Positions 2,458 to 63,413 of a DNA stretch of 64,000 bases are shown here, one piece after another. The notes under the pieces were generated by a model. It saw only the letters and a list, made by a program, of their open reading frames with translations. It ran no database searches and was not told the DNA's origin. The stretch spans positions 1 to 64,000 of the forward strand of contig CALXBC010000002.1 of assembly GCA_944386455.1 (NCBI GenBank), given 5' to 3'. This DNA comes from an uncultured Clostridia bacterium. GTDB taxonomy: Bacteria; Bacillota; Clostridia; Oscillospirales; Ruminococcaceae. A program made the position numbers and the translations under genes. Position 1 is the stretch's first letter, and the number at the start of each line of letters is the position of its first letter.

Positions 2458-3135
2458 ATGAGAATGCGAAAAAAGAAATGGGCACTGCCCGAGCTTTTGA
2501 CCTGCGGCTTTTTTATCGAGCACCCGCAAGAGTTCAGGGGACGCTGGAAGGAACTGTTTCCCCGGCAGGACATACCGATGCGGCTGGAGCTGGGCTGCGG
2601 CAAGGGAACCTTTGCTGCGCAGATGGGGCTGCAGGAGCCGGACGTTAATTTTCTGGGAATTGATCTGATCGACGATATGCTTGGTGTGGCCCAGCGGAAT
2701 ATCAAAAGGATATATAGTGAAGCACAGCGCCCGATCGACAACATTCGGCTGACTGCATGGGACATTGAGCGGCTTTCTCTGATCATGGACGAAAATGACT
2801 GCTTTGAGCGAATGTATATCAACTTCTGTAATCCATGGCCAAAAGCAAAGCACCGCAAAAAACGGCTGACCCATCCCAAACAGCTTGCGCTGTACCGCCG
2901 GCATCTGGCGCCGGACGGTGAGATCTGGTTTAAAACAGACAGCGATCTGCTGTTTCAAGACAGCCTGACCTATTTTCGGGAGAGCGGCTTTGCAATCATC
3001 TACCAGACACTGGATCTGCATCATTCTGACTTCCAGGGCTTTACTCCGATGACGGAGCATGAAAAAATGTTTACAGAAGAAGGGATTTCCACCAAATTTT
3101 TAATTGCCAAAATACAAACGCCGTCAGGAAACTGA
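2458..3135 (+). CDS. trmB: tRNA (guanine-N7-)-methyltransferase
   Basis: Methylates N7 of G46 in the variable loop of tRNAs with S-adenosylmethionine. The product has 225 residues, normal for the family. A Rossmann-fold motif LELGCGKG (about residues 43-50) binds SAM. Other TrmB hallmarks are FLGIDLID, the RMYINFCNPWPKAKHRKKRL segment, GEIWFKTDSDLLF and the C-terminal TEHEKMF...G region. GAGGAG lies 10 bases before the ATG. The stop codon lies inside a terminator-like hairpin, of which a second copy lies ~310 bp downstream on the far side of a dispersed repeat. Confidence 0.96.
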   Translation: MRMRKKKWALPELLTCGFFIEHPQEFRGRWKELFPRQDIPMRLELGCGKGTFAAQMGLQEPDVNFLGIDLIDDMLGVAQRNIKRIYSEAQRPIDNIRLTAWDIERLSLIMDENDCFERMYINFCNPWPKAKHRKKRLTHPKQLALYRRHLAPDGEIWFKTDSDLLFQDSLTYFRESGFAIIYQTLDLHHSDFQGFTPMTEHEKMFTEEGISTKFLIAKIQTPSGN

Positions 3136-3144
3136 TCCTGACGG
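3116..3144. terminator. trmB terminator-type hairpin, copy 1 of a 29-bp direct repeat
   Basis: CCGTCAGGA and TCCTGACGG pair across AACTGA, overlapping the end of trmB. The 29-bp segment 3116-3144 is repeated exactly at 3452-3480, so the two copies frame the 300-bp repeat element. There is no long U-tract immediately after this copy. Confidence 0.7.
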
Positions 3145-3150
3145 TCTTAT

Positions 3151-3450
3151 AGACTGTCAAAAAACGGTAAAAAATAAAAAATCGTCACGCAGGCGGACAT
3201 GCACCGCCGGAGCAGTCTTGACAAACTGCGGGATTTGTTATTGGCTCCTCATAGCACCTCGATGCGGCTGCCGCTGCTGCGACAGCGCGGCCATGACATA
3301 CGGCCGCGAGCGGAGAGGTGTCATCCAAAAGCGATTCGGCGAATCGCTTTTGGATGGAAAAGAGGGGAGTCGGGGGAAAAACACAGAACAAGGCTTTGCC
3401 GCAGTGATTGTGTTTTTCCCTCGAAAGCGTGTCGATTTTTTCGATACGCT
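3151..3450 (+). repeat. dispersed ~300-bp structured element, copy 1
   Basis: This intergenic block matches the reverse complement of 63076-63378 over essentially its whole length. Shared parts include a GGCGG/CCGCC hairpin near 3193-3209, a CGGCC/GGCCG hairpin near 3290-3306, and a 33-base palindrome (15-bp arms, 3-base loop) at about 3325-3357. There is also a terminal hairpin of the type GCGTGTCG...CGATACGC at 3427-3449. The outer ends carry a loose inverted repeat resembling TGTCGAAAAA. Open frames exist on several strands but look like by-products of the palindrome. A MITE-like element or structured RNA is likely; neither a transposase nor a promoter is evident. Confidence 0.8.
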
Positions 3451-3451
3451 T

Positions 3452-3480
3452 AAACGCCGTCAGGAAACTGATCCTGACGG
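3452..3480 (-). terminator. hairpin copy 2, downstream of AIM24-family gene
   Basis: Second exact copy of the 29-bp segment at 3116-3144. Read on the minus strand it lies shortly after the stop of the gene ending at 3498 and forms CGCCGTCAGGA...TCCTGACGGCG followed by TTTAAG, so it can serve as that gene's terminator. Confidence 0.6.
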
Positions 3481-43223: not shown

Positions 43224-46200
43224 GTGAATCAATATGAAAGTGTTATGCAATTTTCAAGGTACATAGCGTCTATCACTACGGTAACCTGCTCGGCATTGAC
43301 AAAGGATACGCCGACCTACCCCGTCAATTTTGTCGTTATGCCGTCCGAGCACCAGTCTCCGGAAGATATGCCGACCATCGATTCGGTCAACTACCCTGAG
43401 AACTCGATCATATTCGCACCCAAGCTGCCGACGCTCGATGGGGCGTATCTGAATGGATGGTATACGGATGAGGCCTGCACCCAGCCCTTTGATTTCAGCA
43501 GCGCGCGGATGCCCGGAGAGGAAATGACCCTCTATGCCCGGTACATCTCTACGCAGGTGGAGGTGCATATCATGGAAAACGCCACCACCGAGCTGGAGAC
43601 GCGGCTGCTGCTCAATGGCAGCAAGCTGGGAGAACTGCCCAAAATCTCCGGCATGACCAGCACCCAGAGGCTGGTGGGCTGGTACGATAATATCGAGTAT
43701 ACAGGCGACCCGTACACGGCGGATACCATTATCCGGAGCGATACGGATATCTACCTTTACCCGCATATCGGCGAGAAGCTGGAGATCGGCATCACCGAGG
43801 ATCTGTTTACAAAGACTGAAAAGGAATACAACCGCAATCCTGTCAGCCTTGCGATGCCGGAGCTTTTTGAGTCCGCAGATTTTTACAGCAAGGGCTTTTA
43901 TACGCAGGATTTGCAGGTGCTGTTCCGCGAGCAGGGCGCGGCTGTCACGGAAGAATGGACCGAGGTGGCGAACCCTTACAGCATAAACAGCGACTGGCCG
44001 GTGCATGCAGGCGTTTATGACGTGCGCATCGTCTGGCCGGGGAACGAGAACTATAAGCCGGTGGATCTCTATCTGGAAGGCTATATCCGCATCAACAGGG
44101 CACCCTTCCCGACGACGGACGGAGCCGCTCTTTCCTTGCCGAGAGTACAGGGAGGCGTTTACAGTGTATCGGTACATCTGCCGGATAATTTCGACCGCTA
44201 CAACTTTACCGAGGATAACCAGGTGACCATCAGGCTGCAGTATATGCAGGAAAATGGAAACTTTGTGGATTATGCCTCCCATACCATGCCGATTTTTGAC
44301 GGCCAGTATGTGATGCACGATAAATATTTGTATACCTTTACAGTCAATCGCGATGAATTGGTCAATCCTGCGGATGACCTGAAGTTCGGCGGCACTCTCT
44401 TAGTCAGTGCGTGCCTGGAGATCTCCGATGGCTCCGACTACTACGGCACCACGACGGAATACAGCCTCGGCGGTCTGCTGTACCCCACTATAGATATGAT
44501 GAATTCGTCTGCAAGGACGGCGCAGGCGGCGGTGCAGGCAGCTTCTCCGCAGGCGGCGACGGCCTCTCCGCTCAGCAGCGACGCCGCGCCTGTCGATGAC
44601 GGCACCCTGCGGCTTACCGGCGAGGACGTCAAGACCATGGCGGGCAAGACCTTCGGCATCACCTTAAGCCTCGACAACCTCGACAGTACGGGGATATGGG
44701 GCCTGATGGCGGAGCTCGATTATGAAGATGGTTCCCCCTTTGAGATGATCGGCTATTCCGCAGGCAGCGCGTTCCCCAGGGAAGGCTTTACGATGCACAA
44801 TGACTGGAGCGCTGACCGCTATCAGTTCGTCGTGTCCAACAACAGCCAGACAAACATCACCTCGGAGGACAGTGTGATCACGTTCTGGTACAGGGTGAAG
44901 GATAACGCTGCAGCGGGGCATTATCCGTTGACGGTCACCCTGTCCGATGCCGTCAATGCCGCGGGGGCGAAAATCCCGTCGCAGACTGCGGAAATTGACG
45001 TGTGGGTCGCCACGGACGGCGACTTCACGGCGCAGACACCTGATGTCAAACTGATAGCGGAGGAGGATTATGTCTATACCAAGGACAACATCGCCGACAC
45101 GCTCTATGTCAACAGCAGCGTATCGGACGGCGGCACCCTTTCCTATCAGTGGTATGTCTATTCGGATAATGAGGAAAACAGCACGCCGGTAAACGGCGCC
45201 ACAGCCCCCCAATTTACGCCGTCGACCGACGCGGCCGGCATCTTCTGCTACTATTGCCGGGTGACCAATACCCTCTCCACGATTGCCGGGGAAAAGAAGG
45301 CGTATACCGATACCGTCAGTGTAAAGGTGGAGATATTGGAGAAGGAATCCGAAATTTATCTTAACCCCGGCCGAGGCGTTTTTGACAGTGGTTCCTCCGG
45401 CAAAGGTCTGTCCACCAAAAACGGAAGGATCCCGAACCTGGACGAGTATAATCCTACGCGGGACGCATATGAATTTACCGGATGGTACACGCAGGAGGAA
45501 GGCGGCGAGCGGGTCGACACCGATACGGTGTTCCGCAAAGACACTACTCTGTACGCCCACTGGGCAGTGACCGGGGAGCTGACCCACGCGCAGGCGCCGA
45601 AGATCGAGTGGGTGACGAAATCTGTCAAGGCAGAGGTGGGCGATGTCAACAACGGCCTTTATGTCGACGCTGTGTCGCCGGACGGCGGTACGCTTCTGTA
45701 CAGATGGTACCGGAGCGACACGGCCAGCAACGAAAACGGCACGCCGATTCCAAACGCCGAGTATTACAGATGTACGCCGGACACCTCGCAGGATGGCATC
45801 GTCTACTACTACTGCGTGATTACAAACCGCAATACAAATCCGGAGATTACCGGCAACCAGACCGCCACGATCAAAACAAAAGCCATCCCGGTCTATACCG
45901 GCACGGTGTATGTCACGCTGGATCCTCAGGGCGGCAGCGTCAGCCCCAATAAGGTTCCGCTGAAGTTCTATGACCAGAGCAGCGGCAGGATCAGGCCTGA
46001 CGGAAATCTGCCGATCCCCGAAAAGGAAGGCTATGCTTTCATGGGCTGGTACACGCAGCCGGAGGGCGGCACACAGATGACGCAGTACGATGATTTCGAG
46101 AATGCCATCACCCTCCATGCCCAGTGGAGCCCGGACGCCCTTACCCCTGTCATCGCCGATCAGCCGGATGATGTGGAGGAACAGATCATCAACACCGAAA

Positions 46201-61408: not shown

Positions 61409-63067
61409 ATGAGAAGCGATAAAATTACAAAGGGCGTCAACGCGGCGCCCCAGCGGGCATTGCTGTATGCGCTTGGCCTGACGGATGAAGAGATCGGCAA
61501 GCCGCTGATCGGGATTGTCAGTTCCAAGAACGATATTGTGCCCGGCCATATGAACATCGATAAGGTGGTCGAAGCCGTAAAGCAGGGCGTTGCCATGGCT
61601 GGCGGCGTACCGATCGTGTTTCCTGCGATCGCGGTCTGCGACGGGATCGCGATGGGACATGAGGGCATGAAATATTCACTGGTGACCCGTGAACTGATTG
61701 CCGATTCGACCGAGGCGATGGCTACTGCACATCCGTTCGACGGTCTGGTCATGGTCCCTAACTGTGACAAAAACGTGCCCGGTCTGCTGATGGCCGCGGC
61801 CCGTCTGAATATACCGTCCATTTTTGTCAGCGGCGGCCCGATGCTGGCCGGTATCCTGCACGGACAAAAAATCAGCTATTCCAATGTCTCCGAGGCGGTC
61901 AGCCGGTACAAGGTCGGGGAGATCGATGACACCGGCCTGGCAGAATGTACCGCCAAGGCATGCCCGACCTGCGGCTCCTGCTCCGGCATGTTTACTGCCA
62001 ACAGCATGAACTGTCTGACCGAGGTGCTTGGCATGGGACTTCCCGGCAACGGTACCATTCCCGCGGTTTATTCCGAGCGTCTGCGCCTTGCCAAGGAAGC
62101 GGGCATGCAGATCATGGAGCTGGTGAAAAAGGATATCAAACCGCGTGACATCATGGTAAAGGACGCGTTTCTGAATGCGCTCACCATTGATATGGCGCTG
62201 GGATGCAGCACCAACAGCATGCTCCATCTGCCTGCGATCGCGCATGAATGCGGCATCACGCTGGACCTGGCGCTGGCCAACAGCATTTCGGACAAAACGC
62301 CGAATCTGTGCCACCTTGCGCCGGCAGGCAATCATTATATTGAAGAGCTCAACGAGGCAGGCGGCATCCGTGCAGTGATGCATGAGATTGACAAGCTCGG
62401 CCTGCTGCACACCGATTTGATGACCTGCACCGGGAAAACAGTGAAAGAAAACATTGAGGGTCAGGAAATCCGCGACACCGAGGTCATCCGTCCCGTTACC
62501 AATCCATATAGCAAAACCGGCGGTATTGCGGTGCTTAAGGGAAACCTTGCGCCCGACGGATGTGTGGTCAAACGCTCTGCTGTAGCGCCTGAGATGCTGC
62601 ATCACGAGGGCAAGGCACGGGTATTTGACTGCGAGGAGGATGCGCTCAATGCCATCTATGACGGAAAAATCAACCCCGGCGAGGTGGTTGTGATCCGTTA
62701 TGAGGGGCCAAAGGGAGGCCCGGGAATGCGTGAAATGCTCAACCCCACTTCCGCCATTATGGGAAGCGGCCTTGGCAACTGCGTGGCGCTGATTACCGAC
62801 GGACGTTTTTCAGGTGCGACCCGCGGCGCCGCAATCGGCCATGTTTCCCCTGAAGCGGCGGTCGGAGGACCGATTGCACTGGTGGAGGAAGGCGATATGA
62901 TCGAGATTGACATTCCCGCCAACACCATCAACGTCAAGGTATCCGATGAAGAATTGGCAAAACGGAAGGCTGCCTGGCAGCCCAGACAACCCCGCATCAC
63001 GACAGGGTATCTGGCTCGTTATGCAAAGCAGGTGACTTCCGGCGCTTCCGGTGCAGTACTGGAATAG
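61409..63067 (+). CDS. ilvD: dihydroxy-acid dehydratase
   Basis: Iron-sulfur dehydratase of branched-chain amino-acid synthesis, converting dihydroxy-isovalerate and -methylvalerate to the keto acids; 552 residues, the usual size. The cluster cysteines are in [11 protein letters not shown] and [20 protein letters not shown]. Other landmarks are [44 protein letters not shown] and [20 protein letters not shown] (near residue 450-470). AAGGGATGAG lies before the ATG. It stands alone with its own promoter, and its 3' flank is occupied by the dispersed repeat, then a terminator. Confidence 0.97.
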
Positions 63068-63075
63068 CAACAGCT

Positions 63076-63378
63076 GAGCGTGTCGAAAAAGTCGACGACG
63101 CTCTCGAGGGACAAACACAATCACTGCAGCAAAGCCTTGTTCTGTGTTTTTCCCCCGATTCCCCTCTTTTCCATCCAAAAACGATTCGCCGAATCGTTTT
63201 TGGATAACACCTCTCCGTTCGCGGCCGTATGTCATGGCCGCGTTGCCACAGCAGCGGCAACCACATCGAGGTGCTGTGCAGAGCACACAATAGATACCTC
63301 AGTGTATTAATGCTGCAACTGGCGGCGCATGTCCGCCTGCGTGACAATTTCTCATGATTTATCGTTTTTCGACAGACT
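63076..63378 (-). repeat. dispersed ~300-bp structured element, copy 2
   Basis: In reverse complement this matches the element at 3151-3450. The central palindrome (about 63171-63203) has arms ATCCAAAAACGATTC and GAATCGTTTTTGGAT, where the other copy has G/C in place of one A/T pair on both arms, so pairing is kept. The CGTGTCGAAAAA end, GGCGG/CCGCC hairpin and CGGCC/GGCCG hairpin are also present. CTGAG occurs at both borders (63074-63078 and 63376-63380) and might be a short target duplication. Confidence 0.8.
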
Positions 63379-63413
63379 GAGCCGTGTGCGCCTGATGGCA
63401 CACACGGCTTTTT
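63379..63413 (+). terminator. terminator downstream of ilvD and the repeat
   Basis: AGCCGTGTG (63379-63387) pairs with CACACGGCT (63400-63408), followed by TTTTTT. It lies directly at the border of repeat copy 2, more than 300 bases after the ilvD stop, as if the element had been inserted between gene and terminator. Confidence 0.8.

What the first reader, a model, noticed from the sequence alone, without database searches (positions are those of the whole stretch)
3151..3450. Two-copy ~300-bp non-coding element with covarying central hairpin
Seen: 3151-3450 and the reverse complement of 63076-63378 align along nearly their full length in unrelated intergenic sites. In the 33-base palindrome, one G:C pair in copy 1 is A:T in copy 2, changed on both arms. 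The terminal hairpin also stays paired (CGAT/GTCG versus CGAC/GTCG). Compensated change argues that folding, as RNA or as a cruciform/hairpin DNA, is selected, or that arms are corrected against each other. Ends share a loose TGTCGAAAAA inverted repeat. Inference: a MITE-like element or structured RNA family of this lineage.
Basis: seen in the sequence. Interest (0 to 1): 0.72.

Follow-up and report, generated by a model that had tools for sequence, protein, structure and literature searches.

The report
Structured mobile element duplicating terminators
A short non-coding jumping element, apparently moved by an IS1182-type transposase, lands in gene terminators and duplicates the whole terminator hairpin, and it carries a conserved RNA-like fold that is found in related bacteria and absent from the Rfam RNA library.

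Summary
The 302-bp unit (3150-3451) and its partner (63076-63379) are two of about 60 copies, in several size classes, in this 2.1-Mb genome. It is a MITE. It has terminal inverted repeats (CAGNCTGTCGAAAAA). Insertions carry direct repeats of 22-35 bp that are palindromes: intrinsic terminators, one complete copy on each side. Intact IS1182-family insertion sequences in related genomes have the same ends and the same whole-palindrome duplications, and a decayed IS1182 relic with an identical end survives in this genome. In all 44 duplications measured the duplicated segment is the palindrome itself, so the cut spacing follows the hairpin, not a fixed ruler. Wan et al. (PMC5678879) drew this as hypothetical 'pathway b' for IS1272, which instead deletes the palindrome. 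The interior is not neutral filler: 12 of 37 pairs in the L-type core, and 47 of 60 pairs across nine genera for the S-type sibling, show compensatory changes, and the + strand folds more stably in 22 of 22 copies. No Rfam family matches. Whether the fold acts as RNA or single-stranded DNA, and what it does, is unproven.

The parts
3116..3144 (+). left copy of the target-site duplication: terminator hairpin at the 3' end of the upstream gene (last bases 3145-3149 have diverged)
   Evidence: exact 29-bp direct repeat with 3452-3480
3150..3451 (+). L-type MITE, copy 1 (302 bp)
   Evidence: TIR ends TAGACTGTCAAAAAA and TTTTTTCGATACGCTT; about 15 long homologues in the genome
3184..3212 (+). 5' stem-loop, including GGCGG-ACAUGCA-CCGCC (family hallmark loop GGACAUGYGCC)
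   Evidence: aligned in S- and L-type copies; conserved across genera
3254..3321 (+). three-way-junction module
   Evidence: RNAalifold and pair counts on 18 copies: compensated pairs in the junction stem and one arm
   Evidence: 8 of 14 pairs with compensatory changes among 18 copies
3369..3424 (+). 3' long hairpin (GGGGGAAAAACACAG...GUGUUUUUCCCUC)
   Evidence: helices 6-9 of the S-type structure, compensated across genera
3425..3451 (+). right-end terminal palindrome containing the right TIR (AAGCGTGTCGATTTTTTCGATACGCTT)
   Evidence: helix 10, 9 of 11 pairs compensated; the transposase-proximal end of most autonomous IS1182 elements read also folds back after the TIR
3452..3480 (+). right copy of the target-site duplication; the full palindrome AACGCCGTCAGGAAACTGATCCTGACGGCGTT runs to about 3484
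63076..63379 (-). L-type MITE, copy 2 (304 bp)
63380..63409 (-). left terminator hairpin of copy 2 (AGCCGTGTGTGCCATCAGGCGCACACGGCT); the right duplicate is missing

Best explanation
The unit is a non-autonomous transposon (MITE) moved in trans by a DDE transposase of the IS1182 family. Shown: it has IS1182-type TIRs, many copies, insertion at gene ends in A-rich/palindrome/T-rich (terminator) sites, and duplication of the complete palindrome whatever its length (22-35 bp). Inferred mechanism: the palindrome is recognised as a hairpin or cruciform, the 3' ends of the element join each strand at the 5' foot of its stem-loop, and gap repair copies the whole hairpin on both sides. Because a terminator copy survives downstream of the element in either direction, insertion should cost the host little (inferred). 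Shown separately: the interior keeps a specific fold by compensatory change across genera, with the + strand favoured. Inferred: the fold is used as RNA, or as single-stranded DNA, in the life cycle of the element.
For: About 60 copies in the genome. 44 target duplications read in this and other genomes: all palindromic (paired fraction 0.62-1.0, mean 0.81, against a background mean of 0.42, with only 1.9% of random windows reaching 0.6), and the dyad lies within 1 base of the centre of the repeat in 40 of 44. Base composition outside the duplications fits terminators: 57% A before, 48% T after, background 25% and 26%. 39 of 42 copies lie within 110 nt of a gene end. Intact IS1182 IS (PF13751, E 3.7e-25) in a same-family genome: ends CAGCCTGTAGAAAAA / CAGCCTGTCGAAAAA, exact 29-bp palindromic duplication. 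Further autonomous elements with 22-34 bp palindromic duplications: L112, L114, L115, L116, L117, L140. A decayed transposase C-terminus (REKHAMRYTPCRGLSQVTN) with end CAGTCTGTAGAAAAA in the own genome. Fold. S-type relatives with palindromic duplications in six further genera. Strand asymmetry: + strand MFE lower in 42/42 and 22/22 S-type copies and 15/18 L-type cores. A congener MAG with one terminator and no element at the orthologous site.
Against: No intact IS1182 transposase was found in this genome or in G001; both are drafts, and ISs are often lost at contig breaks. In G276 the IS1182 ISs present have different ends from the MITEs there, so the partner is not shown in every host. About a third of the copies have lost or degraded one hairpin copy. 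The site in the congener has a different hairpin sequence, so it is not an exact empty site. No transposition or transcription was observed. Insertion shows no preference for the orientation in which a neighbouring gene would transcribe the + strand (7 versus 15), which is no help to an RNA role by read-through.
Confidence: 0.92

Rival explanations
1. A chromosomal structured RNA (cis-regulatory element or small RNA) duplicated by ordinary recombination, not a transposon.
For: Strong compensatory change and strand asymmetry; no coding capacity is apparent.
Against: TIRs, about 60 copies beside unrelated genes, whole-palindrome duplications, and autonomous ISs with the same ends and the same target habit.
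Confidence: 0.04
2. A group IIC-like retroelement, which also inserts after terminators.
For: Both use terminator stem-loops as targets (established knowledge of bacterial class C introns, recalled, not tested by search).
Against: Class C introns lie 3' of one stem-loop and do not duplicate it. Here both sides carry the hairpin, the element has DDE-type TIRs, and no Rfam family reached its gathering score: two matches at E up to 0.1 in six loci and one at E up to 1 in the window region, all far below it.
Confidence: 0.02
3. The compensated arms reflect correction of one palindrome arm by the other (quasipalindrome templating), not selection on folding.
For: The central palindrome has a 3-nt loop, so templated correction could operate there.
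Against: Compensated pairs also lie in the junction stems, which enclose two other hairpins (columns 6-65, 13-58), and in stems in every part of the S-type element. G.U exceeds A.C in every alignment (31:3, 105:15 and 72:13 cells; by pairs p = 0.035, 0.18 and 0.002), which strand-symmetric correction does not predict.
Confidence: 0.1
4. Stem-loop replacing transposition as described for IS1272, with the flanking hairpins pre-existing rather than duplicated.
For: Same family and same class of target (PMC5678879).
Against: Left and right hairpins are near-identical to each other and unrelated between sites; 16 of 35 are perfect repeats.
Confidence: 0.02

Closest known systems
IS1272 (IS1182 family), 'replacement by structure-dependent transposition' (Wan et al. 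2017, PMC5678879)
   Same: IS1182-family transposase; TIRs of about 16 bp; targets defined as inverted repeats of varying size and sequence, often just downstream of genes.
   Different: IS1272 deletes the target stem-loop and leaves no duplication. Here the whole stem-loop is duplicated, the outcome those authors drew as a hypothetical pathway b. The element here has no transposase and keeps a conserved fold.
Bacterial MITEs in general
   Same: Short, non-coding, TIRs, multicopy, target-site duplications, moved in trans by a related IS.
   Different: Duplications usually have a fixed short length (general knowledge); here the length follows the palindrome (22-35 bp). An interior fold held by compensatory change across genera is unusual.
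Group IIC introns
   Same: Insertion at intrinsic terminators; structured RNA.
   Different: No duplication of the stem-loop, no DDE TIRs; no Rfam match here.
CRISPR repeat duplication by Cas1-Cas2
   Same: A palindromic repeat of roughly 30 bp is duplicated whole at each integration (works-like comparison from general knowledge only).
   Different: Different enzyme, no array, any terminator palindrome serves as target.

Membership tests
MITE derived from the IS1182 family | non-coding, below about 500 bp, multicopy | tested here: met
   size classes from 176 to about 330 bp, about 60 copies
MITE derived from the IS1182 family | TIRs shared with an autonomous IS1182 element | tested here: met
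   CAGNCTGT(A/C)GAAAAA in L109, L112, L114, L115, L116, L140; a relic in the own genome with CAGTCTGTAGAAAAA, identical to MITE left ends
MITE derived from the IS1182 family | same type of target duplication as the autonomous element | tested here: met
   whole palindromes of 22-35 bp in both
MITE derived from the IS1182 family | intact transposase in the same genome (common, not required, for a MITE) | tested here: not met
   only a decayed C-terminal remnant found; draft genome, 97.8% complete. This leaves the current mobiliser unidentified
MITE derived from the IS1182 family | mobilised in trans by the IS1182 transposase | not testable with these tools
   needs a transposition assay
IS1272-type stem-loop replacement | target inverted repeat is lost and no TSD is made | tested here: not met
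   TSDs equal to the full inverted repeat
known structured RNA family (Rfam 15) | match above gathering score | tested here: not met
structured RNA (new family) | compensatory base changes beyond shuffled and slid controls | tested here: met
   the A4 alignment was fitted to the model, A1 was not
structured RNA (new family) | transcribed | not testable with these tools
   no RNA-seq

The most novel reading that the evidence does not exclude
The MITE carries a functional RNA that uses an IS1182 transposase as a vehicle: a mobile non-coding RNA family, absent from Rfam, spread over at least nine genera of one bacterial family by copying itself into terminators, with the RNA fold (hallmark loop GGACAUGYGCC) needed for its own mobilisation or for effects on the host genes whose terminators it duplicates.
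Probability: 0.4. Interest if true: 0.82.

Novelty: new variant of a known kind. Interest (0 to 1): 0.64.

Why it matters
Most cut-and-paste enzymes cut the target with a fixed stagger. Here 44 sites show a duplication whose length is set by a hairpin, which implies that a transposase reads DNA structure and cuts at its feet. That was drawn as a hypothetical pathway for the IS1182 family and is now supported by many natural insertions, so it can be tested directly. It also explains how an element can fill terminators without breaking them. The conserved, strand-biased fold inside a transposase-less element is unexpected for a MITE and points to an unrecognised role of RNA or single-stranded DNA in its life cycle.

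Tried and rejected
Rfam on the window region (E up to 1) and on six element loci (E up to 0.1): only matches far below gathering scores. Search for an intact IS1182 transposase in the own genome by profile and by protein: none, only a relic. Pattern for an autonomous-type palindromic end in G000 and G001: none. G001 hit to PF13751 (L111): the ORF looks like a different transposase and has no matching ends, rejected. Low-scoring module hits in G218, G049, G165 and G112 (35-42 bits) look like a different palindromic repeat and were set aside. G276 IS1182 copies as partner of the MITEs of that genome: rejected, ends differ. Read-through from the upstream gene as the reason for strand bias: not supported, no orientation preference. 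De novo RNAalifold on an unguided MAFFT alignment of the cross-genus copies gave only weak structures, probably because that alignment is poor at this divergence; the cross-genus claim therefore rests on the model-guided alignment with slid and shuffled controls. Literature searches found no report of whole-terminator duplication observed for IS1182 elements, or of this RNA; the library is partial, and ISfinder could not be consulted.

Full report
What was checked. They are 86% identical. The compensated palindrome pair and the paired terminal hairpin are present as described.

Copy number. BLAST of the unit in the own genome gives about 15 long (about 300 bp) and about 26 short (about 220 bp) homologues that share both ends but differ in the middle. 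The right-end sequence alone occurs 56 times with at most 3 mismatches, 0 for the reversed control. The additional places include a 176-bp class (L060, L064, L073) and a class of about 310-330 bp (L059, L068) that carries the same three-way-junction module as the long class. The genus mate G001 also has many short copies.

Flanks. Most copies lie between two direct copies of a perfect or near-perfect palindrome that differs from site to site, for example AATCGTAGCCGCTATTAGCGGCTACGATT on both sides of L028. In 44 duplications from this genome, other genera and autonomous ISs, length ranges from 22 to 35 bp, all are palindromic, and the dyad coincides with the centre of the repeat within one base in 40. 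Outside the repeats the sequence is A-rich before and T-rich after, and 39 of 42 copies lie within 110 nt of a gene end. The targets are therefore intrinsic terminators (inferred from composition and position), and the duplication is the whole stem-loop. In copy 1 the stop codon of the upstream gene (by its motifs a trmB-like methyltransferase) lies inside the hairpin loop.

The mobiliser. Searching relatives for the IS1182 transposase domain PF13751 gave, in the same-family genome G009, an intact 1583-bp IS with ends CAGCCTGTAGAAAAA and CAGCCTGTCGAAAAA and an exact 29-bp palindromic duplication. Homologues occur in 24 of 245 genomes of the order, and L112, L114, L115, L116, L117 and L140 also show 22-34 bp palindromic duplications. 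At the transposase-proximal end, most of the autonomous elements read fold back after the TIR, the same architecture as the right-end hairpin of the MITE. The own genome holds only a decayed C-terminal remnant of such a transposase beside an end reading CAGTCTGTAGAAAAA, identical to left ends of MITE copies here.

The fold. The S-type element was aligned within the genus plus one outside copy, turned into a covariance model and found in 14 of 119 genomes of the family, nine genera at E below 1e-10. Palindromic duplications were read for S-type copies in six genera outside the own one. Across 22 of these copies, 47 of 60 pairs are compensated and 95.3% of cells pair, against 75.8% in shuffles and 38-46% when slid; this alignment was fitted to the model, so the slid and shuffled controls matter. 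The + strand folds more stably than the - strand in 22 of 22 cross-genus copies, 42 of 42 copies of a set drawn mostly from the genus and 15 of 18 L-type cores. G.U cells exceed A.C cells in all three alignments, significantly so by pairs in two. This points to selection on one strand, as RNA or as single-stranded DNA. No Rfam family matches.

How it works (shown and inferred). Shown: TIRs, target class, whole-palindrome duplication, kinship of ends with IS1182, conserved strand-biased fold. Inferred: the transposase joins the element's 3' ends at the 5' foot of each stem-loop of an extruded palindrome, and repair copies the hairpin. Wan et al. drew exactly this as a hypothetical alternative (pathway b) to the stem-loop replacement that they report for IS1272 (PMC5678879). 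Inferred also: one hairpin copy keeps its U-tract in each direction, so termination is displaced rather than lost.

What stays open. The currently active mobiliser, whether the element is transcribed, and what the fold does. Orientation relative to neighbouring genes is not biased toward transcription of the + strand, so read-through does not obviously explain the strand bias.

Noticed in passing
L033 (G000 contig 15, about 43858-44207): An S-type MITE has inserted in the palindrome that follows a copy of the three-way-junction module, duplicating that palindrome: a nested insertion showing that the module plus its palindrome also occurs outside the L-type element.
   Followed up: partly
L163 (G000 contig 31, about 23750): Two module-bearing units lie close together and contain a stretch otherwise seen in L-type elements, suggesting that the size classes are mosaics made by recombination.
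   Followed up: no
L065, L067, L070, L072: Solo copies of the right-end palindrome GAGCGTGTCGACTTTTTCGACACGCTC stand near gene ends without the rest of the element; they may serve as terminators or be remnants.
   Followed up: partly
L136 and L131 (IS1182 copies in G216 and G019): The palindromes on the two sides are different from each other, as expected after recombination between copies.
   Followed up: no
L144, L145, L146, L147, L149: Another palindromic repeat of related genomes (AAAAACAGTCCACCGGACTGTTTTT with a GGGGC/GCCCC hairpin) scores weakly with the module model; it may be a separate repeat family.
   Followed up: no
L275, L277, L279, L281 (G276): A different IS1182 subfamily (ends CAGACCGCTGACAAAGTCC) sits at many contig ends, showing that such ISs break draft assemblies.
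   Followed up: partly
63060-63075: Copy 2 in the window has lost its right-hand hairpin; the element abuts the neighbouring gene region directly.
   Followed up: yes
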